A DNA stretch of 64,000 nucleotides from Vigna angularis (taxonomy: Eukaryota > Streptophyta > Magnoliopsida > Fabales > Fabaceae), in assembly GCF_016808095.1 (NCBI RefSeq), contig NC_068971.1:16476001-16540000 (forward strand), written 5' to 3'. Below the pieces are notes generated by a model, which did no database searches, was not told the DNA's origin, and saw only the letters and a list, made by a program, of their open reading frames with translations. Shown one piece after another: positions 24,917-55,800 of this stretch. Every line of letters starts with the position of its first letter. Position 1 is the first letter of the stretch. The position numbers were made by a program, and so were the translations under genes.

Positions 24917-25721
24917 TGTAAAAACTTTGTATCATTAATAAATCTATATTATTTTTTTAAAATAATATTATTTTAAGACATAAAACTAAAATATTTTTTT
25001 CTAAATTTAATTTTATTATATGACAAAATAACTAAAAATTATTAAATGATAAAATTAAAAATTAAAAAATAGTATAAAAAAATCAATACTTTAAATATAA
25101 GTTAATCATTAATAAATTATTAAATGATCAAATAAATAGAAAATTTTAAAGGGTAAAATTAAGAATGAAAGAAATAGAATAGACAAAATAATTAATACTT
25201 TAAATATAAGTTATTCTTTAACAATAATTATATTAAAAATACATTACATAAAATTTTTAATTATGACTAAAATATATAATAGCATAGAAAAGATTAACAC
25301 TTTAAATATAAGTTATTCTTTAATAATAAGAATATTAAAAATACATTAAATAAAAATTATAATTATGACTAAAATGTATGTAAAGACAGATATTTAAAAA
25401 GAAGTATTATTTATTTATTTAAAAAATTAACTAATGTTTAAAATAATTTTTTGGAATTCCTATCATGGTTTAAGTTTATTAAGAAAAAAAAATTGTATGG
25501 GAGAGAATATTTTACGTGACACTGTAAACAGTTTTATTGTTAATAAATATATATTATTTTTTAAATAATATTATTTTAAAAAATAAAAATAAAATATAAT
25601 TTTTTAAATTTAAGTTTATTAAATTATCAATCAAGCAATAAGAAATCATAAAATAAAAAATAGTATAATAAAAATTTATTCTTTAATAATTTATTAAATC
25701 ACCAAGTAATTAAATATTTTA

Positions 25722-27142
25722 GGTATAATAATCTTGGACATGTCTATTTCTGTAGGATTTTCTCAAATAGGTCCTCGTATTGTAAATGTTCTCGATTAGG
25801 TCGCTTATTGTGAAAAATTGAATCAATTTAGACCTCGCCGTTAGTTCCGTACTAACACCGTTAAAGGAGGTGACACGTGTCAGTTCGTGGTTTTTTTGAA
25901 TTTTTTAATTATTTTTTATTTATTTTTAATTTTTAAAAAAAATAAAAAAAAATGTCACGTGTCAAACTGATATTGTGCTACGTAGCAATGATAGTGTGAC
26001 ATGGCACTGATAGTGCCACGTATCATTGTCAGGCCACGTGTCATTATATTAGTCTCAATTTGGTCCCTGTATTTTTATTGTGTCTCAATTTGATTCATGT
26101 ATTTTTATTTTGTCTCAATTTAGTCTTAATTTTAAAAATTAAACAATTTTGTCCCTCCTCAAATTCAAACAAAATTTAAATTGTATATAAATCTTAACAA
26201 ATATTTTTATTAAAATTGATATTTTTGTTAAATATTTTTAACAAGATTAAGTTTAATTATATTTATATTTACTTAATTATATAAATGTTAATTATGTTAT
26301 TTAAATATACCTATAAGGGTTTAAAAAAAGAGTGACATAATATGTTGGTGTGAATTTTCGTAGTGAAAATTTTCATAGAAAATCATGAAAGAAGAAACCA
26401 CCTTTAATTACTGTTTTCACCAAAACTTTCTTCAATTTTTTATTTTAAAAAAAAGTGAAATTTCACATTAATAATTTGTTCAATGAGCTAATTGATTTGG
26501 AAAATTCACATTACCATGTTATGTCATTGTTTTTTTAAACCTTATAGGTATATTTAAATAACATAATTAACATTTATATGATTAAGTAAATATAAATATA
26601 ATTAAACTTAATCTTATTAAAAATATTTAATAAAAATATCAATTTTAATAAAAATATTAGTTAAAATTTATATACAATTTAAATTTTGTTTGTATTTGAG
26701 GAGGGACAAAATTGTTTAATTTTTAAAATTAAGACTAAATTGAGACAAAATAAAAATACAAGGATCAAATTGAGACACAGTACAAATACAGGAACCAAAT
26801 TGAGACTAATGTAATGACACGTGGCCTGACAATGACACGTGGCACTGTTAATGCCATGTCATAGTGTCATTGCCACATGGCACAATATCAGTTTGACACG
26901 TGACATTTTGTTTTTAATTTTATTTTTAAAAAAAAATTAAAAATAAATAAAAATAATTCAAAAATTCAAAAAAACCACGAACTGACACGTGCCACCTCAT
27001 TTAACGGTGTTAGTACGGAACTAATAGCGAGGTCTAAATTGATTCAATTTTTCACAATAAGGACCAAATCGAGAGCATTTACAATACGAGTACCTATTTG
27101 AGAAAATCCTATAGAAATAGGAATGTCCGAGATGATTAAACC
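25722..27142. mobile_element. Foldback Mutator-like element, 1.42 kb
   Basis: Long inverted repeats of about 630 bp (25722-26355 and 26508-27142) face each other across a loop of roughly 150 bp. Ends: GGTATAATAATC on the left; the right end read on minus is GGTTTAATCATC. Flanks AATATTTTA (25713-25721) and AAAATTTTA (27143-27151) match at 8 of 9 positions, fitting the 9-bp duplication of Mutator elements. The arms contain CACGTGTCA-type words repeatedly (about 25870-26045 and 26815-26990). No transposase inside, so non-autonomous. Confidence 0.85.
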
Positions 27143-27616
27143 AAAATTTTAAAAGAATAAAATTAAGAATAAAAAAATAAAATAAAACGAGAAATTAATA
27201 TATTAAATATAACTTATTCTTTAATAATAAATAGATTGAAAATATAGTAGAAATGTTTTTTAATGATGATTAAAATGTGTTTAAGGATACATGAAGTAAT
27301 TTTTTTTTAAAAAAAAAATCAATAAAATTTTAAATAATTTCTAGGAATGCATATATGATTTAAATTGATAAACAATATAATTTGAACTTTATAGATAATT
27401 AACATTTTAAAGATTGATATGAAAATTTTAAATACGAAGAAGTAATAGTTCTATTTAAGAACTAAAATAATAATTTATTAGATATTAAAATCTAGAGTTG
27501 AAATATATATATTGCTATTTTTTACGTAAATCAGTTTAAGAATAAATCAAATTGATAAAATAGTAAAATAAATTTTTAGAGAAATTTTTTTTACATGAGA
27601 GTATAAAAAATTTATG

Positions 27617-33699: not shown

Positions 33700-34375
33700 A
33701 ACACACAATGGGGTTGCATAAGAGGATCATGTTAGACTATTTTTGTGCTTATTGGTGGACCATCAAAAGTTTCATCGTTGGGGGTACCAATTATTTTTTA
33801 TTGATGATTAGTTGAGATTTAATTCGGTATTCATGAAGAAACAAAAATCAGAAGTGTTCAAGAAGTTCAAGTATTGTATTGGATACTCTTAACGTACCAG
33901 ATTGAAAAAATGGTCAAGCTTTTAAGGAACAACAATATGCTATCCGCTTTAGGCCCTGTTCTTTTGAGTGGATTTGAGAGGATGGATTTGGGGGGATTTG
34001 AGAGGATTTGAAGATAATTTTTTTTGTCGTTTATTTGAGTGAATTTGGAGGTAAATGAGAGTGAATTTGGAAATAATTTTTTTTTAATTTGTCATGTCCA
34101 TACAATTCTATACTAATTCTCACAAATTTTATTTCCAAATTCACTCTCATTTACCTCCAAATTCACTCAAATAAACGACAAAAAAAATTATCTTCAAATC
34201 CTCTCAAATCCCCCCAAATCCATCCTCTCAAATCCACTCAAAAGAACAGGGCCTAAAGCGGATAGCATATTGTTGTTCCTTAAAAGCTTGACCATTTTTT
34301 CATAGAGAGACTTTCTAAGACACTTGAGTGTTCTTCATGCTCCACAAAACAATGGAGTTATTGAAAGGATGTATA
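33700..34375 (+). pseudogene. Relic of a copia integrase, interrupted by a palindrome
   Basis: Left of the palindrome, frames around 33770-33880 give fragments like GGTNYF and FMKKQKSEVFKKFKY, as in the copia integrase core. Right of it, 34318-34362 gives LHAPQNNGVIER, the conserved block with the catalytic Glu. Frameshifts and stops throughout. Confidence 0.65.
33904..34301. repeat. 398-bp palindrome: MITE plus inverted copy of its flank
   Basis: The central 33951-34254 is a foldback element whose ends are AGGCCCTGTTCTTTTGAG and its reverse complement. The palindrome continues outward: 33904-33950 (GCTATCCGCTTT next to the element) is repeated in inverse orientation at 34255-34301. A normal insertion would give a direct duplication, so an inverted duplication is implied. 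Arms are about 170 bp and the loop about 50 bp. Confidence 0.85.
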
Positions 34376-37201: not shown

Positions 37202-37705
37202 AAATAAATTTTTTATTTCATTAGAATATCTTCTTTCCAAACTCAGGGACTCTAACTTCTCCCTAGATTTTTGAGACAATTTTTCTTTTGTTCTTCATTT
37301 AGAATTAATTTGAGTTTATTACAATTTTGACATTAGGATATTTTTCTTCTTCCTCTAATCTTAATTCCTCTAATTTAGTGTTGTCTGGAAGGGGTTTTCT
37401 ATTGCATGTATAATTTGATATTAAAAAAAAAAGGATTTATATGTTAGTCTAGTTTTTCAATGATATGTTTTTTTAATCAATTTTTTGGAAGCAAATAGGT
37501 ATCTCTAGGTCTTTTGGATGTTTTTCTTGAGAAAAAGATTTTAAGGCAAGTGAATACATTCTAATTTAGTTAACTTGAATTGATTTAAGTAACCCTTAAA
37601 TTAAATGGTTGATGTTATTGTTTTTGTTTTGAGATGATAAAGCATTTTATAATAGAGATTTTTCACGTAAAATCATTCTCCAAAGTAAGGATGCTATATA
37701 TTTTA

Positions 37706-37997
37706 GGATAATGATATTTCAACACCATTTTTTAACAAATTTTTGACTTTGTTCATGAGTCGGCTTATAATTGGTTCAGGTGGAAAAAATTTTAACAAAC
37801 TGGAAATGACATGGAAATGAAAGTGAGAGGATGTTGTAAGGGTTTTCATTTGGCGGGCTTTATTTTGGGGTTCCAAAAATTGGAAACTCATTTGCGCACA
37901 GAGAAGCCTCGAGAGAACGTCCTTCCACCCATAGACCTCCCATTCTCAGAAATCGTTATTCACCCATTTTGCATCGTTCATCGGAGCCTTGTCCGCC
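37706..37997 (+). repeat. Left terminal inverted repeat of the 10.95-kb MULE
   Basis: Matches 48366-48656 in inverse orientation, from the very end to about GAACGTCCTTCCACCC and a little beyond. Similarity falls toward the inside. Confidence 0.85.
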
Positions 37998-38432
37998 ACC
38001 GGAATGATGCTCCCTACACCTCACCTATTCACCCTATACCCCCAATTTTACATATTTGCCCTTCATTTATTAAAGTCAAAAGAAAGTTAATGATGACTTA
38101 ATGATTTCCTAAGCACCAACCATTCTCCTAACGACCAACAACCCTAAATGTTTTCTGATTATATAAACCCTACCCTATTACATGCACCCCCTTCCTCTTT
38201 CTCATTTTTTCACTTTCATCACAATAGCATTTTGTTCACTTCACTTTCACTTTTATTGTTTGATTGTTTTTTGAGTTGAAAGGTTATAGAGTGGTGGTTG
38301 TCATCCGTGGTTGTGGTGTTGTGCATATTGGAGGAGAGGAAGAAGGTGGTGAGAGAGAGCTCATCTAGGTTAGTTAAATATTTCAATTAAACACCCTTAA
38401 CTGGCGCGTTTGGAGCTCATATGTATTATGTT

Positions 38433-38435
<3 letters not shown>

Positions 38436-38468
<33 letters not shown>
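38436..38468. repeat. Short (TA)n run
   Basis: About 33 bp of TA in the leader region before the transposase relic. Confidence 0.9.
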
Positions 38469-38470
<2 letters not shown>

Positions 38471-38744
38471 CATTTATTTATTTAAATTGAAATATTTATG
38501 ATGTGTTTCATGTTTTATGTAATTATTTTGTTTTTGAAAGTTTTGTTAGTTAATATTTTATGTTATATTGTATTTATTATATACATTTGTGTACGTGTTA
38601 ATTTTTAAACTTTTGATTTAATTTATAAGTTGTTTATATTTGGTAATTTTTATTTTAATTTTAAAAGTTTTCTTTAATTTTTATTTGTTATTTGTTAAAT
38701 TTTAATATTGTAATGTTTATTTAGGTCGTATTTAATTATATAAG

Positions 38745-39550
38745 ATGGATAACTATCCATTTCTCGATTCTCAAATAAATTCTGATTTTTTGTCGGAATT
38801 TTCTTCTTTTCTAAATGAAGTGGGCGAGGGTGATTACACAAATAAGTATTCCACTGATCAAATCGTTCCATCACGTGCCGATTTAATTGAAGGGGTTCGA
38901 AAGATTGCACTTGACCTTGGAAATGTTGTCGTCATTATAATATCTGACACAACAACTAGTGAAGCTGGAAGAAAGACATTTATTTTGTTAGGCCGTGAAA
39001 GAAGTGGGAAGTATAGGAAGTATAAGCCAAATGTTCAGTCTAGTGTATCTGGCACAAGAAAATGTGAGTGCCCGTTTAGGTTGAGGGGTGAACCTAAAGG
39101 ACATGGTTGGGTGTTAAAGGTTATGTGCAACTATCACAACCATGAATTAGCAGAGACTTTGGTTGGTCATCCTTCCGCGGAGAGGTTAAATGCTGTTGAA
39201 CAGTCAATTCTTTTGGACATGACTAACAGTCAAGTAAAGCCGTCAAATATTCTTTTGACTCTCAAAGAACATAATGAAGATAACATGACCACGATAAAGC
39301 AAATATATAATGCGAGGTACACTTACAAACGATCTTTGAGAGGGTCGAGGACTTCAATGTAGTAGTTGATGATGTTGTTAGATAGAGACATATACATCCA
39401 GAGAAGAAGATGTTTGGACGATTATGACGTGGTAAGTGACCTGTTTTGGACACATCCCGATTTAGTGTACTTGTTGAATTCATTTAATATATATGTGTGT
39501 GATACACTACTATTTGAAAATAATACATCAGAATTATTCTTTAAATCTTT
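38745..39550 (+). pseudogene. MULE transposase N-terminal part, broken
   Basis: The open stretch 38745-39362 begins MDNYPFLDSQ. Residues about 100-130 carry a FAR1/WRKY-GCM1-type zinc motif: KCECPFRLRG followed by CNYHNHEL (Cys, Cys, His, His). Two stops (TAG TAG, 39361-39366) follow RTSM. The text after them, LDRDIYIQRRRCLDDYDVV and FWTHPDLVYLLNSFN, is the segment before the first catalytic Asp of MULE transposases. The catalytic DDE part is not recognisable after about 39550, where HMG-CoA synthase sequence starts. The family binds terminal inverted repeats and cuts DNA; this copy cannot. Confidence 0.8.
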
Positions 39551-39554
39551 TAAT

Positions 39555-40210
39555 AAGTAAAAGGGTGATACTCTTCTCATATGGAAGTGGCTTAACTTCC
39601 ACAATGTTCTCCTTGCAACTACGTGAAAGTCAATCTCCATTTAGCTTGTCTAACATTGTCAAAGTGAGGGACGTTGATGGAAAACTAAATTCAAGGCATG
39701 AGGTATTTTAGCTTTTGAGAGTCTAAAGAAAATAGAAGTATTGCACGGTGCCTACCATATTTAAGATTTACTTTGAATATATTACTGTATGCTTCTGCAA
39801 TACATTAATGCGTCAATTTTTTCACATAAAAAAAGAAACATTTGATTTTATATAAAATAATTGAGTAACCAGTTACTAAGTTGATAAAAATACACCGTTT
39901 TCTTGTGAAAATTTTTGGTTTTTTAATTCATCTTTTAGTTGTGTCTCCAGAAATTTTACTGAGTTGGAAAGGTCTAGAATTTCTTTTTCACCATCTTGTT
40001 TCAATGCTCACGAACACATAACCTTTGTGGGTTTTTATGCAGTTTTCGCTAGAGAAATTTGTTGAAACCATGAAGCTAATGGAACGTATGTATGGTGCGA
40101 AGGAGTTTGTAACAAGGAAGGACACAAGCCTTTTATCTCCAGACACATTCTATCTCACTGAAGTTGACTCCATGTATTGGAGATTCTATGAAAAACAAAC
40201 TAATAGATAG
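39555..40210 (+). pseudogene. Captured 3' end of an HMG-CoA synthase gene, two exons
   Basis: Exon 39555-39702 reads ILFSYGSGLTSTMFSLQL and SLSNIVKVRDVDGKL, ending RHE at a GT donor. The acceptor TATGCAG lies before 40043. Exon 40043-40210 reads [40 protein letters not shown] and ends TAG. This is the C-terminal part of plant cytosolic hydroxymethylglutaryl-CoA synthase of the mevalonate pathway. The reading phase joins across the 340-bp intron, so genomic DNA rather than cDNA was carried. The catalytic N-terminal part is absent. It abuts the transposase fragment within the same MULE. Confidence 0.85.
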
Positions 40211-40603
40211 GAGAAAAGATTATGATAGATTTAAAAAAGTAATTATTTACATATCAACGTATAAGCATAGATTTTATATTACTTTAGAAGTTACTTGATG
40301 TCTACTTTATATAGATTATTAGTATAACGTATAAGTTTTTAAATGTATTAAAAGGTTAACAATTTTATCATTTTATTATTAGGTTTAATAGGTTCGGAGG
40401 TCCCTATATTTGCGGGTTCGTTTCAATTGGGTCCTTCAATTTTGGAAGTGATCAATTGGGTCCGTAATTTAATAAAATTAAGTCAATAATACCCTTTCTG
40501 TTAAATGCAATGGACGGCGTTAACTTCTTAAACAGGTGGCATGCTGAAGCATCGTTCTATTTGCACCTGGCCCAGTTTGAGCTGAATACGTGTATTTGCA
40601 CCT

Positions 40604-40935
40604 GGCGCAGGAGAAGAAGACCGACCCTCTTCTGTGGTCAATTCAGGTCAGTGCCGCCTCAACTCCACCGGTGTCTCCCTCCCTTCCGTCGACCTCGCAC
40701 ACCGTCTCGTCTCCTACATCTGCTTCGACAACCACGTCCCCTCGCCTGGAAGCTTCTCGAGAAAGCCATGGCCGTCAGAATCCTCCCTCCCTTGCTCGCC
40801 CTCTCCCTCATTTCCACTCGCGTCCTCCCCCACCGCCACCTTCACCCTGCCGCCTACGCCCTCTACATCGACCTCCTCAACCGCCACGCCTTCTCCCTCT
40901 CGTCCAGGAATGGATCTATGAAGGATGTACTGAAA
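40604..40935 (+). pseudogene. Captured N-terminal fragment of Mediator subunit 33 (REF4/RFR1 type)
   Basis: Three frames give consecutive pieces of one protein: AQEKKTDPLLWSIQV (about 40604-40648), LNSTGVSLPSVDLAHRLVSY with ICFDNHVP (about 40650-40740), and WKLLEKAMAVRILPPLLALS, STRVLPHRHLHPAAYALYI, LLNRHAFSL (about 40740-40910). This is the start of plant MED33A/B, a Mediator tail subunit acting in transcription and phenylpropanoid control. Two frameshifts prevent translation as one protein. The last codons near 40911-40935 may be a short piece of the next exon. Confidence 0.8.
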
Positions 40936-41330
40936 GAACAAACCTTGTCCCAGGAAGGTTCAGGATCAAACAATTTGGCAAATTTTGAAGGCGAGAGGTG
41001 ACCGTCTTGGTGCGGCTGTTGATGGTTAACGGATTTACCCTCTTTCATGGTGGAAGAAGAAGCAACGAATAAGAATAAAAAACAAAGAGTAATCGGGAGT
41101 GAAACACTTCACACAGAATTTGGGATTTCGACAACGCTGGAGGGTGAAAAAAGAAAATTAGGGTTTTGGATTAGAAAGGGAAAGGGAATCTGAATGCAAA
41201 TTAAAAATTGCAGAAATTGGTTGTTAATGTTGCATCTGGCATTTCATCTACATTAACATCAGGGATCTCAAAGGGTAATTGTTGCATTGACCTTTTTAAT
41301 TAATGGATAGAATATAGAACTGTAATCTCT
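40936..41330 (-). pseudogene. Captured 5' UTR and first exon, RAB5-interacting family-like
   Basis: On minus, ATG at 41048 opens MKEGKSVNHQQPHQDGHLSP (continues SKFAKLFDPEPSWDK). It ends at a GT donor (exon end 40944, GTTTGT). This resembles the N-terminus of plant RAB5-interacting (RAB5IF-like) small membrane proteins, whose family continues with a DQLGDVLHWIRQ-like part that is missing here. 41049 to about 41330 would be its leader region. Identity rests on recall of one short exon, so less sure than the two other fragments. Confidence 0.55.
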
Positions 41331-41344
41331 GTTCAAGGAATGAA

Positions 41345-41655
41345 ATATGGAAGCAATTACGTAGAGGAAAGTGCAAGAATCTCAGATACCGGTTGAGGAG
41401 AAGGAGGAAAGGATGAGGAACTTGGAGCGCCGAGAAATTGAGTTCATGAGGATTCAGAGACGTAAAATTGGAATTGACGATTTCGAGCAATTGACGATGA
41501 TTGGGAAAGGTGCTTTTGGTGAGGTATGCAAAATATAATCTGCATAAACATTTGGTTCCTTCTGAAGGTGTGGTCACTGATACCTTTGAGAAAATATAGG
41601 TGAGGTTATGTCGTGCTAAAAGTACGGGAGAGAGTTTTGCCATGTGCCACGTATT
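41345..41655 (+). pseudogene. Captured NDR/AGC kinase fragment with an intron
   Basis: Exon up to 41523 reads VEEKEERMRNLERREIEFM, then IGIDDFEQLTMIGKGAFGE: the N-terminal regulatory helix and the Gly-rich loop of NDR-type Ser/Thr kinases. The GT donor is at 41524 and AG ends at 41599. The next exon, 41600-41643, reads VRLCRAKSTGESFAM, continuing the kinase in phase. It stops just before the catalytic Lys region, where the right inverted repeat begins. Splice sites are intact. Confidence 0.85.
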
Positions 41656-42237
41656 AGTTCAAACTTTGCCACATGGATGCCACGTATTAGTTCAAACTGT
41701 GCCACATGGAAATAAAAAAGATGTTCAGCATGCCACCTGTTTAAGAAGTTAACGACGTTCATTGCATTTAACGGAAAGGGTATTATTAACTCAATTTTGT
41801 TAAATTAGGGACCCAATTGATCACTTTCAAAATTAAAGGATCCAATTGAAACAAACCCGCAAATATAGGGACCTCCGAACCTATTAAACCTTATTATTAT
41901 AATTAATTTTAACTAAGTTTAATACAAACTTGTAATTAGTAATTAAATGGACAAATTATAAAGTGAATTTACATATTAAGTAAATACCGAGAAAAGTAAT
42001 TGGTATTTATAATTTTCTTTGTACAAGAAATTAAAATCATTTTAATGACATGAAATATTTACGTTAACCTACTGTAATGCTCAAGAAATACGTAATATTT
42101 TTATTTATGAAATTCTATATTTTCTTAAAATATTACCAATTATAACTTATAATCGGTAAATAATAATATACTAGTTTTCTTTAAAAAAATAATATAAGAG
42201 TTAAAAACTAATAATTTTATTCATTCGTCTTGTTTTA

Positions 42238-44743
42238 TGCGAGGACCTCAAAAATAGATTTAAAAATGAAGCAAAAGGGTGTCTTAAGTTAATAGGACCA
42301 GACTTTAAAATGTCATTTCAAACATCTTGGCCCATTAGCTTATTATGTCTCTCTCTAAAACTCAATTTCAGATTTCCTCTGCCTTCTCTCTATCACAACT
42401 TTGTCTTCTCTCTTCCATTCATCCTCTTTGAACCAGTAGATTTCCAATCAGGTGGTGCCAAAACGTCCGCAGCGTAGCGAGCTTCGCAACAGACTGATTC
42501 GTTTTGGGTCCTAGGTTGGTAAGTCCCTACATGCAGCTTCTTCACTGTTCTTGAACGGAGACGTACATTCTTGTTGGTTGCATGTGCCTTTTTGCTTTTC
42601 CTTCTTCCATTTCTACTCCATTCTAGCTCTAAGAGTTGTTTATGTCACCAATGTGGTGTTCTGTAGGGTTTGTTGAGTTCTCACAACTCAAGGTTCGGTT
42701 GAAGGGTTCTTGTGAGCTGTTCAGTCAAGTTACTCTAAGGTAAGGGGAGCAAGGATACATTTTTATATTGATTGCATGTGATGTATGCTGAGTTTTGTAC
42801 TGTTGTACTGTTGGTTTTGTGTTATGACTTGGAAAGATCTAGTTGCATGTGTTGAACTTTGGGACAGTGGAACTGGAGTGTGATGTTTTTATACTGTTTG
42901 GATGTATTTAATTGTTGTAATGACTATGTTGAAGTGCTTCTGGTGAGAGACCCGTTGTATCAGTGAATAAAATAGGAAACTTAGAGTTCTGGTAGTGTTT
43001 TGGGTCACTTGAGAGGAAGTGAGGTAGTGATTTTGGGAAGTAGGGGTTTTGGGCACAATTGGGTTGTTGGGACATCTTAGGCAAGTCATTTGTGACTTGT
43101 TAGGATCATGAAACTGGTTTAGAACATGCTAAAAATGGTAGAATTAGATTTGAGCCCCTAAGTTGAGGAAATTAGTGTTTTAAGAAGGAATTTGGGTCTT
43201 ACTCACTTAATAATCACTATATGAATGAGTAAAATCAATTAGATAAGTTTAATTAGGTTTATATCACCCATTAGAGGTCTTAGAAGTTGGGGAAGATTAT
43301 TGGAAATGGTAAGAGGGTGTGGGTGGGTATAATTTTGCAGAACTTGCATTCTACAGATTATGCAGTCCCGCTATGCGAATGGTCTCGTACAGCGAGACCC
43401 TATAGAGGGTGCTCACTGTCTGAGTCATTCGCTGTGCGAGCTGGTGCATTGTGCGAATGACTAGAGGGTGTTGCTCTTTGTTTGTGGATTCGCCTAGCGA
43501 ATCCTGTCGCTATGCGACTGATGATGGTATGGAACAACTCCTATTTTAATTCGAACGACGAGTTTGGGCGCATAGCGAGTCTTTGGGAGGGGTGGTCTCT
43601 GTCTAGGCTCTCGCATAACGACCTGGGTGCGCTATGCGAGAGGTTGGAAGTCTGATGCATGCAGTGAGTTAATTCGCATAGCGAATTAAGTGAGTGTGTT
43701 ATGCGAGGGACATGAGGTACAACACCTCAGCGAGTTAATTCGCCTTACGAGTGACGGTGCGCTGCTCGAATCCTTTGAGTCTAGTCTTCTCTTTTGCTCT
43801 CTTTTTGGTTGAATCAAGTGTGTGGAATGTTGGGAATGCATAGTATGATGTGGTAATGTGATTATATTGAAAGTATGCGAGTGTATGAAACATTGTTTGG
43901 TGATTGAAAGTATATGGTTTTAAAAGTATGGTTGATAGACGTAATTCCATGGATCTCAAAGGAAGGTTACATGGTGGTGCCTTGTATTATTGGACGTAAT
44001 TTCATGATCTTCAAGGAGAAGATTCATGGTGGTGTCTTAGTGTTTAGAATGATTTGCATGGTAGCTCAGTCTTGGGGTTTATCCTGAAACTACAATGGTC
44101 AATCATTCTCAAGTAGAGAGGATTGAATCCTGTCGTGAGTAGTAGCAGGAGGTCCTAGTCTTGGGTGCTTCCAGTATGGCCCAAGGTGAGTGATAATGCA
44201 CTAACCTCGTGAGTGTGGTAGGGTGAAACCCATTGGCAATGTCTTTGTAAAGTAGTAGAGGCCACCACGAGTGCATGACCCGCCATAGCTCGACAATCAT
44301 TCTAAGTCCGGACGAGTCAAGTGTAAAGTGTAACAAGTGGTGTTGTATGGTTCATTAACTTTGAATTAAACTTGCATGTTGTATGCGATTGTTATAACAT
44401 GATTTTTGTATATCTAGCTCACCCTTGCTTCTGTGTTTGTGTTTTGCTTGGGTATGCTTTTCTTTTACAATGATCATCCACTTGGATGTGAGCAGATGTG
44501 GATGAGGTGCCTCTGGAGCAGGCTTTGGAGGAAGATAATGCTACTGCTTAACTTGTTTATGAATTTCTTAATTAAGTTCTATCCTTTTGAAATACTCTAA
44601 TGCGTTTAAAGTTTTAAATTATGGCACATTTTGGGATGACTATAACTTTAATACTTTACTTACAGTCTACTTCTAACTGTTCTCTTATATTAAAATGTGG
44701 ACTTACTATATTATATGCTTCTATATAATCTGGGATGTTACAT
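42238..44743. mobile_element. Solo LTR (copy 2), nested in the MULE
   Basis: 2506 bp, starting TGCGAGGACCTC and ending GGGATGTTACA. Flanks are TTTTA (42233-42237) and TTTTC (44744-44748), a 5-bp duplication with one mismatch. Same family as 5947-8019. 43935-44040 contains a local duplication of the ACGTAATTYCATG block. Minus-strand ORFs inside are accidental. Confidence 0.7.
43366..43770. repeat. Interspersed CGCTATGCGA / TCGCATAGCGA words in solo LTR 2
   Basis: Variants of CGCTATGCGAA and its complement (ATTCGCATAGCGAATT) recur at about 43371, 43424, 43490, 43508, 43571, 43612, 43632, 43673, 43699 and 43738, in both orientations. The matching part of copy 1 has quite different short repeats. 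Confidence 0.75.
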
Positions 44744-44949
44744 TTTCAAAATATGAAATGAAATAATATCTTTCATTTTATAATAATAAAATTTAAAAGC
44801 ATTGAAATGTTGTTTTTATATGTTTCATTTCCATCTATCTCATTTGATTAGAGATTATATTTCAATTCACTTTATTTCAGTTTCTCTCTCCAATCTAAAG
44901 TTCAAACATATATTTTTAAAAGAACGGGTAAAAGTCTATGATCATTTTC

Positions 44950-47110
44950 GTATCATTTCGTGAAGGATGGGTACCAAAGACCAAATAACTGGGGACTTAA
45001 GACAAATGTTTTGCATTGTGAGGTCAACACAGGTCATGACATTAATTTATGAGTGGAAATTGTTTTTAACAATTAATGGACATATATCATCTTGAGGTAA
45101 TGATGACCACATTTATATCCAATTTCATCACCATGGAACAAACTTTTCTATAACTCTTCATCAAAAAATGGATGGGCACAAAACGCCAAATAATTGGGAA
45201 CCTAAGCAAATGTTTTGCATAGTGATGTCAACACAATATTGACATTAATTTATGAGTGGAAAAATTTTTCTTTAACAATTAATGGACATACAACTCATCT
45301 TCAGGCAATGATGATCACATTTATATCCAATTTCATCACCATGGAACAAACTTTTCTATAACTCTTCATAAAAAAAGAGGTGCCAAATAAGTGGGAACGT
45401 AACGCCAATGTTTTGCACAACGAGATTAACACAGGTCATGACATTAATTTATGAGTGTAAATTTTTTTTAACAATTAATGGACATACAACTCATCTTCAG
45501 CCAATGATGTCCACATTTATATCCAACTCCATTACCATAGAACAAATTTTCTGTACCTCTTCATCAAAAAATGGGCGAGCAGCAAAGGTCAAATAACTAG
45601 GAACCTAAGGCTAATGTTTTGCATAACGAGGTCAACACAGGTCATGACATTAATTTATGAGGGGAAATTTTTTTTTTAACAATTAATGGACATACAACTC
45701 ATCTTCAAGCAATAATGACCACATTTATTTTCAACTTCATCATCATTGGACCAACTTTAACTATAACTCTTCATAAAAAAAAATGGTGGGCACCAAAGGC
45801 CAAATAACTAGGGACCTAAGGCTAATGTTTTACACAACGAGGTTAACAAAGGTCATGACATTAATTTGAGTGGAAAATTTTTTTCTTAACAATTAATGGA
45901 CATACAACTCATCTTCAGGAAATGATGACCAAATTTATACCCAACTTCATCACCATGGAACCAACTTTTCTATAACTCTTGATTAAAAAAGTGGGTGGGA
46001 ACCAAAGGCCAAATAATTGGAACCTAAGGCAAAAGTTTTGCACAGCAAGGTCAACACAAGTCATGACATTAATTTATGAGTGAAATTTGTTTTTTTAACA
46101 ATTAATGGACAAACAAGTCATGTTCGCCAATGATGACCACATTTATATCCAACTCCATCACCATGGAATAAACTTTTCTATAACTCTTCAGAAAAAGTGG
46201 GTGGGCACCAAAGGCCAAATAACTAGGAACCTATGGCTAATGTTTTGCACAACAAGGTCAAAAAAGGTCACGTCATTAATTTTTGAGTGGAAATTTTTTT
46301 TCTTAACAATTAATGGACATACAACTCATCTTCAGGTAATGATAACCACATTTATGTCTAACTCAATCACCATGGAACAAACTTTTCTATAACTCTTCAT
46401 AAAACAATGGTGGGCTCCAAAGGCCAAATAACTGGGAATCTGTGGTCAATGTTTTGCACAACGAGGTCAACACTGGTCATGACATTAATTTATGAGTGAA
46501 ATTTTTTTTTTATCAATTAATGGACATACAAGTTATGTTCAACCAATGATGACCACATTTATATCCAATTCCATCACCATGGAACAAAATTTTCTATAAC
46601 TCTTCATAAAAAAATGGGTAGGCACCAAAGGCCAAGTAACTGGAAACTTATGGCTAATGTTTTGCATAGTGAAGTCAACAGAGGTCATGACATTAATTTA
46701 TGAGTGAAATTTTTTTTTTAACAAATAATGGACATAAAAGTCATCTTCAACCAATGATCACCACATTTTATATCCAATCCATCACCATGGAACCAACGTT
46801 TCTATATTCATTCATAAAAAAAATGGGTGGGCACCAAATACCAAATAATTGGGAACCTGATGTTAATGTTTTGTACATCGAGATCAACACAGATCATGAC
46901 ATTAATTTATAAGTGGAATTTTTTTTAACAATTAATGGACATACAACTCATCTTCAGCCAATGATGACCACATTTATATCCAACTCCATCACCATTGAAC
47001 CAACTTTTCTATAACTCTTCAACAAAAAATAGGTGGACACCAAAGGCCAAATAACTGGGAACCTAAGTCTAATGTTTTGCACAATGACATCAACACACAT
47101 AATGACATCC
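44950..47110. repeat. Tandem array of ~208-bp units, about ten copies
   Basis: Landmark GACATTAATTTATGAGTG recurs near 45038, 45241, 45439, 45647, 45857, 46066, 46274, 46479, 46688 and 46897. Other landmarks in each unit: AACAATTAATGGACATACAA, CATTTATATCCAACTCCATC and GGCCAAATAACTGGGAACCT. Units differ by a few percent and by A-run length. Non-coding. Confidence 0.92.
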
Positions 47111-48365
47111 ATAGTTGGTGGGGATTGCACTAAAATTGTCTAACACATAAAATGTTCATTCTTGTATTGAACCCTGTTATAATCAACATCCATATTTGGT
47201 GGAGACTACACCAAAAATAATACATCACCCACAACGACAACCCTGTTACAAATACAACACTATTATACACCAATGTGTAATACATTAAATGATAATTCTT
47301 ATCTTCAAAACATAGGAACACATTCAAAGTAACACTAAAATCTAGGAAAGTACAACTTTATTATCAACAAATACAATGAATACATTTCTTTCAAGATTTC
47401 CAACAAAAATTATGTTCTTCAAAGGTAATCAATAGGTTATCAAAGAGTTCTAACAAAACCATAAATGACATTGCAACAACCATTATTCTACAACAACCCT
47501 AATTGTTGCAACACTTCATCCTTGCAGATATTGTCAATATTCAAAATCCAATCAAAACAAACTTCTCCGTAAACTATTGCAGCTTCTCCTGAAAACAATA
47601 AAATGCACACAAAATGAATAAAATGCTCAATCTTTTATTAAAGGTCCATAAGAATTTTTTCTTACTTACGCTTGCGTAATTAGGCGTTGTTTTCTCTTCG
47701 TATTTATCAACACCATCACACAACTCCATAAATTTCATAACAATAACTCCACAATCATACCTACATCAAACAAAGTTCAAAATATAAATAATGTCATACT
47801 ACTTCAATCAAACAAATAAATATTATAATAAAAAAAACAGAGACTAAACTTATGTGTTGGGTTTGATTGGAGTGTGCACGTGTTGTACTTGGAAGGATGG
47901 TTTGTTTTCTTCATAACGATTTAACAACATTATTGAAAGATAAACAACCATAAACCAACATTATTGAAAGAAACTAATAAATTTTCAATACAACACATTT
48001 ACTTACATTGTTTACACCTTATTGTTTAATGGAATTCATGACTGTCAAAGCAAACATTGTACAAAAGATATGTCAAAATAACCTAACAACAACCACACAC
48101 CCAAAAAATTGTAACTTTGCACCCAAGACGCACAAAAACCAAGGAATAATCAACCAAAAGTTCAAATATTTTAAACAATTCAATATCACCGAACAAAAAA
48201 AAACAAAGGATAATGATAACGAACCACACAAACTTACAAATGGTGCTACTTCCTCTTCAATGGTGGTTTTTGGAGCACGTTGGTTCTTTGAAACGGCGGA
48301 ACGAAGACAAATAAGATTCTGATGAACAGCTTCGAAACAATGATAGGAAAGACTCTAGTGAATGA
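47111..48365. other. Inner right part of the MULE without a recognised gene
   Basis: AT-rich with a small internal duplication (CCATAGTTGGTGG near 47109 and CCATATTTGGTGG near 47190). The ORF 48008-48322 runs into the inverted repeat and has no known relative. Confidence 0.5.
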
Positions 48366-48656
48366 CAACGGTCCGGTGAATGGTGCAAAGTGAGTGAATG
48401 ACAACTTCTGCAAATGGGAGACCTGTGGGTGGGAGGACGTTCTCTCGAGGCTTCTATCGCGCAATTGAGCTTCCAATTTTTGAAATTTCCAAAATGAAGC
48501 CCACCAAATGGAAACCCTTGTAATCCCCTCTCATTCCATTTCCACATGATTTTCAGTTTTTTAAAATCCTCTCCACTTAGACCAATTACAATACGACATC
48601 GACAAGTAGACAAAGTCAAAAGTTTGTTAAAAAATGGTGTTGAAATATCATTATCC
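48366..48656 (-). repeat. Right terminal inverted repeat of the 10.95-kb MULE
   Basis: Inverse of 37706-37997, ending GGTGTTGAAATATCATTATCC. Confidence 0.85.
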
Positions 48657-48665
48657 TATATTTTA

Positions 48666-49828
48666 TATCCAAAATGTAAATATTGTAATCATTATAAAGA
48701 CCAAGTGTCCGTAACTTTGAGAGGCTTATATATTTAGTCTAGAGAAATATTGTCCTTATTATTAAACTTGGATAAGAGTTTAGTAGATAACATGTAAAAG
48801 CTTAGTGTAATTAGCTTGAAGGGACGTTATGCACTCAAAAATATAACTTACAACTTTATTCATTGTAAGTTAAAAATAACATTTGTTAAAATGAACAAAT
48901 TATGCATTATTACAGAACATTCCTTATTTATATATAAAAAAAGGTTTATAGGAATTTATAAAATTATTAATTGAACTTAATGGATCCCTTACGAAAAGAT
49001 TTTTAGAAGTATTTTTAATAGTTTTATTAGAAGTATCTAAGCCTTCACGATAACTGTAAGAGGATGGGGAACAATATCCATTACGGTTAAAGGGAATTTT
49101 GAGTGATTTACAACATTGTAAGCAAAACAGTGGAACATTTCCTTATTTATTTTCTTCTAATTATTTGAATAGTTTCATTATTAATAGAATTGAGCCGTGT
49201 TTCTTACAGTACTGTACACACTATTTATTAAATGCAATTAATATTGTTTTTGTTGAACAAACGTAGTTAAAATATAGCTTATAGCTATACTAGAGAGAAG
49301 AGAAAGTATACACAGCTACTTTCTAGCTTTCCACATAATCAACAACCAATTCAAAACGGAAATACACAATCTGAAAGCCGAACTAGAAAATCTATTATAC
49401 AAAGGATGAAGTACAAGAACATGTATGAACATTAAAAAAAAAAAAAAACCCTGCTCGTACAATTTCTCTTTGGCAAGGGTTGTGTTACCTCAGTATTTTG
49501 TAGGAATCCGGTACTCTTCACACACGTAATAATACGCTTAATTACACAATGAGAGTGGAATGTGACAATCAAACAAAGGAATAATACATACAATGGCGAC
49601 AGAAGCAGCAATGGCCAAAATTGAAGCTGTAGCACCCAACTAACGATTCCACCGCATCAAATTGTTCTACTCAGATGAAGATTAGTTTGCTCTATAGATT
49701 TTTCAACATCAAACAAAACTAGGCAAAAACACATCCAAATATAAAAACCACTTGAAGGGTTTGAAGCAAGGAACCTCCGATGGCTCACTCCAGAAAGTGC
49801 TTCACCAGAGGCTGTGCCATGCCCTCCC
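48666..49828. other. Intergenic DNA and 3' UTR side of the LMBR1-like gene
   Basis: No coding seen. The part nearest 49828 should be the minus-strand 3' UTR of the membrane protein gene; its exact end is not visible. Confidence 0.5.
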
Positions 49829-52800
49829 TTATGTAGATAATTGGAACCTCCCACTAGGTTTTTTTCTTCTCCATCCCTGGTATTTTCGTGTTAAAAAAAA
49901 CTTTTAGTATCAGTAAAATATTAACAAACGTTTAAACAGTTGGAACTAACTTTGCAAAGGTAAACTTACAAACGCAGCGTAATACACAAAGGTCAATCCA
50001 GCTAAAGCAACAAACGCAATTTGGAACACATTGTACCTGTAATGGAATAACCAGTCAGTCAAACTCAATTAAATTGTATTATTACTACCACATTATAGCC
50101 ATATTCAATGTTCACAAACTCTTATCTAAATTCAAAATATATAGTAGGTCAAAATTGGAACAATAAGCGCATAGTGTACTCTAGATTGACAAGTTAGCAG
50201 AAAGAAGTAACCATTTTTTGCCCCACGCGAAGGCAGGCAAGTAGAGGCAGAAGAAATTCAGATTGACTCACTTGTATAAATATTTAATTCCTCGAAGAGA
50301 CTCCAAAGTGTGGCCAAAGATTTCCTGGGCTGCAGTTGCTTGAGCATAGTAGGCAAAGGCTGTGGAGCAGAACTGGATCACACTACAAGGTAAAATAATA
50401 CAACTTTCAGCGAGGGTGTACAGCATGCCATGATCATGACAGCATATAACAAGTGCCTTAAACTTTACATGCAACACTACTTGTGCAACTCTTCTTACAT
50501 TATGTAAGAGAAAAACAAAAAAAATATCATAAACTTTATGACACTCAGGTAGAGAAGCTAGAAGCTTTAACTTCAATACACATACCACCCCATTAGGAAT
50601 GTACAGCAGAGACTATACTTACCTAATGGAAGAAAGAAGAATAAGGCCCACATTAAACAGAAAAGAGTTCATAAGAGTTGCTCCCCACCTGCCAGATATA
50701 AGATCATATTGTCAGATACAAATAGGGATGCCAAACTACCAAAATGGAGAATGAAATATAAATCTATAGCACTTAAATTACTTCATGGGATGTATAGTAA
50801 TAAAAACTAGTCTCAGTCCAAGCACCATGGCACCAGTAATCACAGCAAGGAGAAGGTAGAAGCAGAAAAATGCAAATGCAGCAGTGCCGAGAAGACCTGA
50901 TGAAATAACAAATTACATATATCATCTAGATTAACTGAATAAATATTATAATGTATTTATTCTAGTATACATAATAACTAAAAGAAAGAAAATAATCAGA
51001 CGTTTCCAACGTACCCCATACATCGTCTAGCTTGATGAAAACTTGATTCAGGAAAGGAGAAAGTGGTGGATCAATTAATAGATAGATAATAATATGAATG
51101 ATCCACACAACGGAAACAATCAACCTGTTAACAGTTTTCAAATAGATAAGAAACATAACACTTGTTAAAATTGTTCAACAGTTCAGAAGGATCATACTGC
51201 AACCACACAGTTTATAGCTTACCCTAAAATTCCAAAAACAAGTTTTGCCAGATAACCAAGAATCGTTAGTGCCCATGTTGTCTCAGCCTATATTCATGCA
51301 GGCTTGGTCAGAGGGAAAAAATTACACATTGATTATACCTGAAAATTAAAAAAAAAAAATAGAAATTTGATCATGGACCTTTTCCCCTTGAGGATACATC
51401 TCTTCAAGAAGCTTTACGTCTTCTTCTAATTGAAAAACCTCCTGCAGAATTATGTGAGATTTATACGTAAATCACTTTAATTTCACAAAATGCTTCAACA
51501 ACTGTAAAGTATATGGTGCCAGCATCAAATTTCATATGGAAAGCCCAAGCTAACAATTGTCTCCACAAAAATACTTAAAGAATAAAGTAAATAAAACTGA
51601 TAAATGATCAATATTTGTTTACCTTCTCGACTGCCTTCACATTTTTACGAAACTTTCTACCCTTTGAACCACCCTTTTCTTCCTGACGGAGAGCCTCGGC
51701 TGCTTTCTTTAAATCTTTTGCTTTTTTACCTAGTTCAGTGGCTTCCTGCAGTAACCAAACCAACAACACCATGAATATAGTATAGCATATCAGGTAAACA
51801 AAAAAAAAAGCTAACGAATTACATTTTTTTCAGTAACAATATACAGCACCTTGATATACTGTGAGCGAGTGATAACAGCCTTTGGACGCCGAATAAATGA
51901 AAATATAAGTCCTAATGGAAGACATGCAATACCAACACCGCCAAATATCTGGATTGAATAGAGAACAGTGGTCAAATATCATGAATATACTTAAGATTGA
52001 AACTGTAAAATAATTCTAGAGGGCTTATTGATCCCTCTCACAATCTTCTATTTATAAGAATAAATTGATACACAAATACATGATAAATAGGGTAACCCTA
52101 GACACAATATAATCATGATAAATAGGGTAATCCTAGACATAATATAATCATGATAAATAGGGTAACCCTTGACACACTATAATGATGATAAAATAGGATA
52201 AATATCCTAACACTCCCCCTCAAGCTGGAGCATACAAATTGTATGTACCAAGCTTGGAACAAATAAACTCAATCCGAGGACCCCTTAATGACTTGGTCAA
52301 TACATCTGCGAGTTGATCGTTTGACCCAATAAACTCAGTACATATTTCTTTGGTCAACAACTTTTCACGAACAAAATGACAATCAATTTCTATATGTTTA
52401 GTCCTCTCGTGAAACACTGGATTTGATGCAATGTGGAGAGCAGCTTGATTGTCGCAATACATCTTCATAGTATGGATGTCACAAAATTTAACCTCTTGAA
52501 GGAATTGTTTCACCCATATAAGTTCACATGTTAGTGATGCCATTGCCCTATACTCGGCTTCCGCGGTTGATCGAGCTACTACATTTTGTTTCTTACTTTT
52601 CCATGAAATAATGTTTCCTCCCAGAAAAACACAATATCCTGTTGTAGACCGTCTATCAATAGGTGAACCTGCCCAATCTGCATCACAATACCCAGAGACA
52701 TGAATGCTTCCTTTATCTTCATATAACAATCCTTGCCCGGGAGCCTTCTTTACATATCTTAGAATGCGAATGAGAGCATTCCAATGGTCAATACATGGAG

Positions 52801-55800
52801 CCTGCATGAACTGACTAACCACTCCAACTGCAAAGGATAGATCTGGCCTTGTAATAGTGAGATAAATCAGTTTGCCAACCAGCCTCCTATACCTCTCTGG
52901 ATCAGAGAATAATTCACCTTCTTCTGTCCTTAATTTCTGGTTTGGGTCCATGGGACTGTCTACCGGTCTACAATCAATCATGCATGTTTCTTGTAATATA
53001 TCAAGAGCATACTTCCTTTGGGAGATTACAACTCCATCTTTTGATTGCGCTACTTCAATGCCTAAGAAATATTTGAGACTTCCAAGATCCTTGGTTTGAA
53101 AATGTCTACACAAGTACTCTTTTAGTTGAGATATTCCAACAGCATCATTTCCTGTAATGACAATATCATCAACATATACTATTAAGTAAACACATTTCCC
53201 GAGAGAAGAATGACAATAAAAAACTGAATGGTCTGCTTCACTGCGTTTTAGCCCAAATTTTTGAACAATGGAGCTAAACTTTCCAAACCAAGCACGTGGG
53301 GATTGCTTGAGGCCATATAGAGATCGATGCAATTTGCATACCATACCAGACTCCCCCTGAGCAACAAACCCTGGAGGTTGCTCCATATAAACTTCTTCCT
53401 CAAGATCACCATGTAGGAAGGCATTCTTGATATCCAATTGATGAAGTGGCCAGTGACGAATGGCTGCCATGGCAAAGAAGAGACGAATAGTAGTCATCTT
53501 GGCTACAGGAGAGAAAGTGTCACAATAATCAAGACCATAAACCTGAGTGTAACCTTTTGCAACAAGCCGAGCTTTGAGCCGATCAATTTCACCATCAGGG
53601 CCAACTTTAACTGCATACACCCATCGACAACCAACCGCCTTTTTTCCTGGGGGAAGGGGCACCAGCTCCCAAGTATTACTGTGGTCAAGAGCCTGCATTT
53701 CTGCAATCATAGCTTGTCGCCATCCAGGATGATCAAGTGCTTCTTTCACATTCTTGGGTATAACAACAGAGGACACTGAGGATAAAAGAGAAAAATAGGA
53801 GGGCGACAATCGATGATAGCTTAGAAAATTATAAATGGGATGAGGGTTCCGAGTGGAACGAGTACCTTTTCTGAGGGCAATAGGCCATGCTGAATCATTT
53901 GCACCAGGAGGCGTGGGAGGAGGTGACGAGGGAGAAGAATCTGAAGTAGGAGATTCACCATTGTCTTGGGGAGGTGGACTATCCATTGGGGCCCTGTGTG
54001 GGATGATCTCAGTATGTGGAGAAACAGGTGTAGAAGGATTGTGATCATGACTGGGAATGACAGAGACAGTGGAGCTATTTGACTCAACCATTGGAATAGG
54101 AAGGACCTGCTGGAGGATAGAAACATCCTGAACAGATGGAGAGAAGTAAGGAGTCTGTTCAAAGAATGTGACATTGGCAGACATGTAATACTTCTTAGTT
54201 TCAGGAGAGTAACACCGATATCCTTTTTGAAGTCGAGAATAGCCTAAGAAGACACATTTGAGAGCGCGAGCGGAGAGTTTGTCTAGACCTGGAGACATGT
54301 CATGAACAAAACATACACAGCCAAACACTCGGGGAGATGTATGAAAGAGAGGATCATTAGGAAACAAAATGGAGAAAGGGACTTTATTATCAAGAGAGGA
54401 GGAGGGCATCCTATTAATAAGATAACATGCAGTTAAGATGGCATCCCCCCAGTGATGGACAGGAATATGGGCACCAAGCAAAAGGGTACGAGCAGTTTCA
54501 ACCAAGTGTCTATTTTTTCGTTCTGCTATACCATTTTGCTGTGGTGTATGAGGACAAGTAGACTGATGTAAGATACCATGGGAACTCAAGATGGTAGAAA
54601 AGGAGGATGAAAAATACTCTTTGGCATTATCACTTCTTAATATTTTGATTACTTGACCAAATTGATTCTTGATTTCATTCAAAAAGGATGTAAAGATAGC
54701 TAACAATTCAGAACGATTTTTCATAAGATAAACCCAAGTACATCTTGAATATTCATCAATAAAGGTAACAAAATATCTATAACCAAAGGAGGAGATACGA
54801 CTAGGTCCCCATATATCAGAATGGATGATGGAAAAACTAGAATTACATATTGATTGAGACCTTTTAGGAAAGGAAGATCTAACATGTTTTCCTAATTGAC
54901 ATGACTCACATTCTAAGGTTTGGAGACCACTAAGTTCAGGACACATCTTTTTTAATTTGGACAAATGAGGATGGCCAAGTCGATCATGTAGCACTTTAGG
55001 ATTAAGAGCAGCAACACAAGACACCCTTGGACGAGATCCAAAATGGTATAATCCGCCAGCTTCATATCCTTCTCCAATCTGTCTCCCCGAACCACGCTCC
55101 TGTATAACAAAAGATTTATGATCAAAGGTTATTGAACAATTTAACATTTTAGTCAACTGGCTTAAGGAAATTAAATTAAAAGGACAATTAGGGACAAAAA
55201 GGACTGAGTTGAGATTGAGGGAGGGAGACAAAGAAACATGACCGACTCCTTTGGAAGAAGTTTTAGATCCATTTGCAAGGGTTATGAAATGAGGTTTTTC
55301 TCGAAAGGAAATAGATGAGAACAAAGAGGTATTACCAGAAATGTGATCAGAAGCACCTGAGTCAATTACCCATGAATTTTGACATTCCATAGATTGAGAA
55401 ACGCAGGCTGTTGATGTATTGGGAGATTGAGATGGTTGTGCCAAGCGGTTAGACTTTAACCTTAAATACTCTTGATATTCATCCTCAGAAAACATAGAAG
55501 TAGAGGTTTCAGTTTTCAAAGTGGAAGTTTCAGTCTTCGAAATATTGGCGGTTTTGGAAGGGAAACCATGTAAGGAGTAGCAATTCTCTTGAGTATGACC
55601 CATCCTTTTACAATATGTGCATTGAGTACGTCCCCGACCTCCTCGTCCTCCTCCTCTAGTGCCACGTCCTCCTCTTCCTCGTGTGGCAACCATGACAGAT
55701 GGTTCCACTAGTTCATGCGCTTCTTGAGTTTGAGATACCGGGACACGCAGAAGGCGAGTGGTCAATGTTTCCATAGAGGGGACCTCATGACTAGTTAGAA

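What the first reader, a model, noticed from the sequence alone, without database searches (positions are those of the whole stretch)
40382..41890. Pack-MULE carrying pieces of three unrelated host genes
Seen: ~220-bp inverted repeats, perfect 9-bp duplication TTATTATTA, and between them fragments reading as Mediator 33 N-terminus (+), a RAB5-interacting-type first exon (-), and an NDR kinase N-lobe with an intact intron (+). Known: Pack-MULEs capture gene parts. Inferred: at least three capture events in one kilobase with mixed strands. If the locus is transcribed, antisense or small RNAs against MED33 or NDR kinase mRNAs could form.
Basis: partly seen in the sequence, partly recalled or inferred. 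Interest (0 to 1): 0.88.

Follow-up and report, generated by a model that had tools for sequence, protein, structure and literature searches.

The report
Jumping gene carrying four gene scraps
A small bean-family jumping gene has picked up pieces of four unrelated plant genes, and sister copies elsewhere in the same genome show the order in which pieces were added; the kind of element is known, but this family is an unusually readable record of how such capture happens.

Summary
Confirmed and extended. Window 40382-41890 is a 1509-bp Mutator-like element with 211/210-bp TIRs and a perfect 9-bp duplication. The genome is almost certainly Vigna angularis. Three more copies of the composite, two split by later insertions, have their own perfect 9-bp duplications. 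Eleven further elements show the MED33|RAB5IF junction without NDR. In others an AP2/ERF fragment sits where MED33 was, leaving a 2-nt MED33 scar. Structure and divergence agree on order: MED33+RAB5IF first; later, on separate lineages, AP2/ERF replaced MED33 and ALF4+NDR entered RAB5IF. A sister TIR subfamily encodes MuDR-type transposase domains. It is a new member of a known kind (multi-gene Pack-MULE). Transcription and small RNAs could not be tested; MED33 is frameshifted here, and selection is not shown.

The parts
40373..40381 (.). left target-site duplication TTATTATTA
40382..40592 (+). left TIR, 211 bp, begins GGTTTAATAGGTTCGGAGG
   Evidence: 43 matches listed in the genome with 40 of 637 candidates scored
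40593..40603 (+). start of a partial tandem repeat of the inner TIR end, running into MED33
   Evidence: family D2
40604..40906 (+). MED33 exon 1 fragment, donor L027 3052-3356, 97.0% identity, two 1-bp deletions (frame broken); start codon and upstream part missing
40905..41258 (-). RAB5IF fragment, donor L026 3210-3563, 95.2%: start of intron 1 (40905-40943), exon 1 CDS (40944-41048), 210 bp upstream of the ATG (41049-41258)
41258..41360 (+). fourth donor piece: 103 bp, 100% identical to C7:11727837-11727939, probably an intron of an ALF4/glomulin-like gene
41361..41644 (+). NDR (tricorner-type) kinase fragment, donor L025 about 4606-4889, 98.6% over 41363-41644: exon part to 41523, intact intron 41524-41599, exon part 41600-41644
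41645..41677 (-). extra 33-bp tandem unit of the inner TIR end
   Evidence: family D1
41681..41890 (-). right TIR, 210 bp
41891..41899 (.). right target-site duplication TTATTATTA

Best explanation
A non-autonomous Mutator-like element (Pack-MULE) whose cargo was built in steps. SHOWN by comparison of copies: an ancestral element held MED33 (sense) joined to RAB5IF (antisense). In one descendant line an ALF4-intron piece and an NDR piece came to lie inside the RAB5IF part, and that composite is found at four sites with four different target duplications, one of them this window. In another line an AP2/ERF fragment stands in the place of MED33. INFERRED: additions were made by gap repair with template switching at 0-3 bp of shared sequence (or in part by exchange of arms between elements), and movement was driven in trans by a MuDR-type transposase such as that of the sister TIR subfamily. 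At this locus it is most likely a passive, decaying passenger; any RNA would most plausibly start in the captured RAB5IF upstream region and run leftwards, antisense to MED33 (not tested).
For: TIRs plus perfect TSD. Donors for all four pieces in the same genome, MED33, NDR and RAB5IF as multi-piece genes by tblastn. Four copies of the composite with TSDs TTATTATTA (window), TTATTTTTA (C6), TTTCATGAA (C7), TTATATTTA (C10). The C6 and C10 copies keep RAB5IF 3585-3616 on the far side of NDR, so NDR went into RAB5IF. Donor divergence over the four copies: MED33 41/1062, RAB5IF 64/1397, ALF4 4/411, NDR 15/1029; MED33+RAB5IF versus ALF4+NDR p=1e-7. AP2-type elements carry the MED33-derived TC at the joint (7 of 7 rows; donor lacks it) and in L045 AP2 differs from its donor at 19/1395 against RAB5IF 9/139, p=0.0005. 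24 of 38 stretches scanned gave a TIR pair with a perfect duplication of 9 or 10 bp. DBD_Tnp_Mut, MULE and SWIM domains lie between sister TIRs.
Against: The two TIRs differ by about 11%, so the age of this insertion is not sharp. Donors differ in constraint (coding versus intron), which affects divergence. Overlaps of 0-3 bp are weak evidence for template switching. L041 carries AP2 pieces without RAB5IF and L020/L022 mix TIR subfamilies, so arm exchange between elements is a real alternative for those steps. Transposase-bearing elements have TIRs only about 82% like these, and no intact transposase was established, so mobilisation in trans is inferred. Copies are related, so pooled counts are not independent. 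The C10 copy is put together from two halves about 35 kb apart (L039, L012) on the strength of order, strand and matching TSD.
Confidence: 0.9

Rival explanations
1. Exchange of arms between different Pack-MULEs, rather than new capture from genes, swapped much of the cargo (AP2/ERF, lectin kinase joined to a common RAB5IF right arm).
For: L020 and L022 have a left TIR of the sister subfamily (about 82%) and a right TIR of the window subfamily. L041 carries AP2 373-946 with the same AP2 start at the TIR as L044, L045 and L050 but no RAB5IF. Many elements share TIRs.
Against: ALF4 and NDR lie inside RAB5IF, not at an arm; the ALF4 query matched only the four NDR-bearing copies and its donor (5 of 5 matches), and the element query showed no NDR outside the composite and the donor (but only 40 of 742 candidates were scored).
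Confidence: 0.3
2. The locus or its sisters act as a regulatory or coding gene: antisense or siRNA source against MED33, RAB5IF and NDR, or a chimeric protein.
For: Sister elements keep open chimeric frames: 150 aa MED33+antisense RAB5IF in L016, L017 and L018 (3 of 3 of that structure with the MED33 start), 302 aa lectin-kinase+MED33 in L022. V. angularis protein models match such cargo (P0001; P0002). L013 and L014 carry both donors' upstream regions facing each other. Pooled over element pairs pN/pS is 0.48.
Against: This copy has two frameshifts in MED33 and no MED33 start; pN/pS versus donor is as low in the frameshifted copies (0.17, 0.24, 0.45) as in the others (0.12-1.9), so the low ratio cannot be read as selection. 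No RNA data. Gene models may be automatic predictions.
Confidence: 0.1
3. All pieces were captured in one event by several template switches.
For: ALF4 and NDR are adjacent with similar low divergence, so these two may be one event; MED33 and RAB5IF have equal divergence in L013 and L014 (p 0.62, 0.77).
Against: MED33|RAB5IF elements with RAB5IF continuous across the ALF4/NDR site exist (L013, L014); divergence differs about threefold.
Confidence: 0.04
4. Ordinary gene or assembly artefact.
For: None found.
Against: TIR, TSD, independent copies with other TSDs, donors elsewhere.
Confidence: 0.01

Closest known systems
Pack-MULEs of rice and other plants (Jiang 2004 recalled; review PMC13317346, passages seen)
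   Same: Non-autonomous MULE, long TIRs, 9-bp TSD, internal gene fragments
   Different: Here the step order can be read from sister elements and a junction scar; four donors in 1.5 kb
Multi-locus Pack-TYPE elements (PMC8903248) and multi-parent MULE-derived genes in Oryza (PMC4858842: 5-10% with at least two parents); passages seen
   Same: Cargo from several chromosomal loci; chimeric frames
   Different: A legume family; order and place of insertion resolved
Animal Pack-TIRs (PMC8277862, passages seen)
   Same: Gap filling with short microhomology (median 2 bp there; 0-3 bp here)
   Different: Plant Mutator-like elements, repeated change of cargo on one lineage
MULEs with tandem TIRs (PMC3310237, passages seen)
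   Same: L015 has an additional 25-bp TIR end outside its right TIR
   Different: The window element has only a 33-bp inner repeat, not a full tandem TIR

Membership tests
Mutator-like element (MULE) | long terminal inverted repeats | tested here: met
   211/210 bp, about 89%
Mutator-like element (MULE) | target-site duplication of about 9 bp (range recalled) | tested here: met
   9/9 here; 24 of 38 stretches scanned perfect, one 8/9
Mutator-like element (MULE) | related TIRs flank a MuDR/MULE transposase | tested here: met
   sister TIR subfamily (about 82%): PF03108 in L067, L069, L070, PF10551 in L068, L069, PF04434 in L068, all above cut-off. No transposase with the window's own TIR subfamily was found, but only 40 of 637 TIR candidates were scored; intactness of the transposases not established
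Pack-MULE | internal fragments of host genes with donors elsewhere, no transposase of its own | tested here: met
   no transposase recognised by eye in six frames, longest ORF 163 aa
Pack-MULE | mobility after capture (several copies, distinct TSDs) | tested here: met
   four copies, four TSDs
Pack-MULE | transcription / small RNAs | not testable with these tools
   no RNA data

The most novel reading that the evidence does not exclude
One Pack-MULE lineage keeps a RAB5IF-plus-right-TIR arm as a fixed anchor and swaps or adds cargo next to it again and again (MED33, then AP2/ERF, lectin receptor kinase, ALF4+NDR), each time from a gene by gap repair; the junction scars record direction and order, and some by-products are intact in-frame fusions of up to three genes that could be new proteins or, where both donor upstream regions face each other, a source of double-stranded RNA against two housekeeping genes.
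Probability: 0.25. Interest if true: 0.65.

Novelty: new member of a known kind. Interest (0 to 1): 0.42.

Why it matters
How Pack-MULEs take up gene pieces is still debated. This family gives donors, several intermediate stages, a scar that tells which piece came first, and amplified end products in one genome, so the gap-repair and arm-exchange models can be tested directly by comparing Vigna genomes. It also warns annotators: adzuki bean protein models P0001 and P0002 match transposon cargo.

Tried and rejected
Ordinary gene: rejected (TIR, TSD, donors elsewhere). Solved structures and Pfam for the MED33 and RAB5IF pieces gave nothing useful; NDR was found in solved structures, and in Pfam only below the cut-off. 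Exact TIR 23-mer in genome contigs and viral contigs: 0 hits each. Rfam on 37600-48800: 0. I first took 41196-41362 for NDR intron; the genome search showed it is RAB5IF upstream DNA plus the ALF4 piece. I first wondered whether the MED33 paralogue was lost in Vigna, because one search listed no Vigna or Phaseolus MED33; a multi-piece MED33 gene is present in the genome. Selection on the chimeric frame: pooled pN/pS is 0.48, but frameshifted copies have equally low values, so it is not read as selection. AP2-first order: possible if TC were filler and MED33 switched at TCGTCCA; thought less likely because AP2 is much less diverged than RAB5IF in the same element. A stretch of 20 kb at C6:26355500-26375300, fetched to look for an autonomous element, held only a TIR pair 1.5 kb apart and no transposase recognised by eye. 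On re-checking for this report I added L041 (AP2 without RAB5IF) as evidence for arm exchange, and for that reason lowered the best explanation from 0.93 to 0.90 and the novel case from 0.30 to 0.25 and raised the arm-exchange rival from 0.25 to 0.30; the count of MED33|RAB5IF elements without NDR was corrected from nine to eleven.

Full report
WHAT IS THERE. The element spans exactly 40382-41890 (1509 bp). It is flanked by TTATTATTA on both sides, and its first and last 30 bases are perfect inverted copies; the TIRs align over 211/210 bp at about 89%. The local match probability per base is 0.286, giving 1.3e-5 for a 9-mer. No other copy of the TIR was found in the window.

THE CARGO. Before the genome was reachable, protein searches gave: NDR kinase fragment, best solved match CBK1 4lqp E 2.7e-11 and V. 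mungo NDR 93%; MED33 fragment, Mucuna MED33A 84% and other legumes; RAB5IF exon, 94% to several Vigna and Phaseolus proteins. The genome search then placed the window at G000:C2:16476001-16540000 in a 448-Mb assembly of 33 contigs. Contig C5 has the length 41,033,850 given for a V. angularis protein's contig (P0127). The RAB5IF donor gene matches V. angularis P0124 at 100% over residues 1-35 and 71-127 and at 72% over the piece between. P0002 of V. angularis has its first 46 residues in the translation of L024 and its last 55 at 100% there (the first 113 residues as a gapped piece at 69%). I therefore take the species to be adzuki bean.

DONORS. MED33: C8 (L027; tblastn with P0003 covers residues 10-942 of 1312 in eight pieces, as far as the fetched stretch goes). 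RAB5IF: C5 (L026, three pieces). NDR: C7 near 15.46 Mb (L025, six pieces) (all). Fourth piece: C7 near 11.73 Mb, 103 of 103 bases identical; of four open frames around it given to Pfam, one has a weak match, below the cut-off, to the YAP/Alf4/glomulin family (E 0.0053) and three none, so the name ALF4 rests partly on my recall and the intron on its position between open frames. Window versus donor mismatches: MED33 9 of 303, RAB5IF 17 of 354, ALF4 0 of 103, NDR 4 of 282. MED33 has two 1-bp deletions here.

THE FAMILY. 38 stretches were scanned, window included; several belong to one locus (C7: L010, L011, L055, L056; C10: L012, L039, L057). 24 gave a TIR pair with a perfect duplication of 9 bp (one 10 bp), L018 an 8/9 match, and 13 were incomplete, split, not elements or without a clear duplication (shifts of up to 3 bp at each end were allowed, and for L015 the right end used is an extra 25-bp TIR end). 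Structures: (a) MED33 2639-3356 + RAB5IF 3210-3634, L013 and L014; L015 the same with a deletion across the joint; (b) as (a) with RAB5IF 3241-3421 deleted, L016-L018; (c) variants with lectin receptor kinase (L019, L020, L022) or other sequence (L021, L023, L053) to the left; (d) ALF4+NDR composite: window, C6 (L009), C7 (L010/L011), C10 (L039/L012); (e) AP2/ERF joined to RAB5IF: L045 and trimmed forms L044, L046, L048-L050, L052; (f) L024 with MED33 but no RAB5IF, L041 with AP2 but no RAB5IF; (g) L028, L040, L043, L047, L051 with neither. The MED33|RAB5IF joint lies at the same place in 14 of 14 MED33|RAB5IF rows (window, L009, L011, L013, L014, L016-L023, L053; single-base differences next to it in some), 11 of them without NDR. 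Other cargo by Pfam: legume lectin domain (L022), FHA (L041), AP2 (L045), BolA (L040), DUF1117 (L050); nothing for the L023 piece; the TPR-like start of L024 is by eye only (no Pfam match in P0002). Donors were also found for AP2/ERF (C4) and the lectin kinase (C2, 98%). The source of the rest of the cargo of L044-type elements was not found because that search did not complete.

FOUR COPIES OF THE COMPOSITE. TSDs: window TTATTATTA, C6 TTATTTTTA, C7 TTTCATGAA, C10 TTATATTTA. The C7 copy is split by an LTR retrotransposon with 1303-bp ends 99.2% alike and a 5-bp duplication GTCAC. The C10 copy is put together from two halves about 35 kb apart, lacks the MED33|RAB5IF joint, and is interrupted by a sequence that begins with the same 12 bases as the C7 insertion. 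Window and C7 share two 1-bp deletions in MED33, C6 has only one of them, so window and C7 look like sisters.

ORDER OF CAPTURE. C6 and C10 carry RAB5IF 3585-3616 after NDR, so ALF4+NDR entered the RAB5IF part; in L013 and L014 RAB5IF is continuous across that place. Pooled over the four copies, MED33+RAB5IF differ from donors at 105 of 2459 sites and ALF4+NDR at 19 of 1440 (p=1e-7; copies are related, so this p is optimistic; the window alone gives 26 of 657 versus 4 of 385, p=0.006). AP2 elements read TTCG-TC-CAGG or, in L045, TTCG-TC-TAGG (7 of 7 rows): the AP2 donor ends its match at TTCG, the RAB5IF donor has CAA before CAGG, and TC(CA) is the end of the MED33 match. With AP2 at 19 of about 1395 columns against RAB5IF 9 of 139 in L045 (p=0.0005), AP2 came later and took the place of MED33. 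MED33 and RAB5IF diverge equally in L013 and L014 (p 0.62 and 0.77).

HOW IT WORKS. Overlaps between donors at the junctions are 2 bp (MED33/RAB5IF), 1 bp (RAB5IF/ALF4) and 0 (ALF4/NDR) as read, and 3 bp for AP2/MED33: in line with template switching in gap repair as proposed for Pack-TIRs (PMC8277862, passages, median 2 bp), but not proof. Exchange of arms between elements is a live alternative for some steps: L020 and L022 mix TIR subfamilies and L041 has AP2 without RAB5IF. The transposase is probably supplied in trans: elements of 3.9-5.9 kb (L067-L070) with TIRs about 82% like the window's and 9-bp duplications hold MuDR DNA-binding, MULE or SWIM domains; I did not establish that any is intact. 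Two-gene elements contain 369 bp upstream of the MED33 ATG and 281 bp upstream of the RAB5IF ATG, pointing towards each other (coordinates); this copy lost the MED33 side.

FUNCTION. Selection is not shown: pN/pS against the donor is 0.17, 0.24 and 0.45 in the frameshifted copies and 0.12-1.9 in the others; summed over element pairs it is 0.48, which alone might suggest constraint, but the frameshifted copies are a control against that. Open chimeric frames in sisters (150 aa in L016-L018, 247 aa in L020, 302 aa in L022) are worth an expression test. The V. angularis protein P0001 reads through the MED33|RAB5IF joint, but no identical copy was found in this assembly (best full-length matches 95-96%).

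LITERATURE. Multi-locus cargo is known (PMC8903248 and PMC4858842, passages). A search listing for Pack-MULE with Vigna gave 6 papers, none about Vigna Pack-MULEs by title; Vigna angularis with Mutator, transposon and gene fragment gave 0. The library holds open-licence papers only. Hence: new member of a known kind, with an unusually clear record.

Noticed in passing
37706-48656: A larger MULE-like element encloses the Pack-MULE: about 290-bp TIRs (80% alike) beginning GGATAATGATATTTC, perfect 9-bp duplication TATATTTTA (37697-37705 / 48657-48665), with an ORF at 38745-39362 that looks like a FAR1/MULE transposase start (by eye; Pfam AFT below cut-off). So the Pack-MULE is nested in another MULE.
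   Followed up: partly
L022 750-2143; L020 713-2092: 302-aa and 247-aa open frames joining a legume lectin receptor-kinase segment with a probable transmembrane stretch (by eye) to MED33 and antisense RAB5IF.
   Followed up: partly
L024 714-1895: V. angularis protein P0002 (VIGAN_09206700) matches this Pack-MULE, which joins a TPR-like start (by eye) to MED33 continuing past the RAB5IF joint.
   Followed up: partly
L041 717-2185: Carries AP2/ERF pieces with the same start at the TIR as the AP2|RAB5IF elements, but an FHA-domain piece and no RAB5IF, and an inverted AP2 stretch next to its right TIR.
   Followed up: partly
one search hit list: No Vigna or Phaseolus full-length MED33 named among the 120 listed of 198 hits, although the gene is in this genome; unexplained, perhaps gene-model length.
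   Followed up: partly
44965-47108: Tandem array with a period of about 205 bp (self-comparison), inside the larger MULE.
   Followed up: no
51989-56863: LTR element, Copia-type by eye, with 99.1% identical ends and a 1369-aa open frame.
   Followed up: no
25710-27152 and 33903-34302: Large palindromes (87% and 93%) like fold-back elements.
   Followed up: no
57650-58465: Open frame (-) with many copies of a RGLPDPN-type repeat.
   Followed up: no
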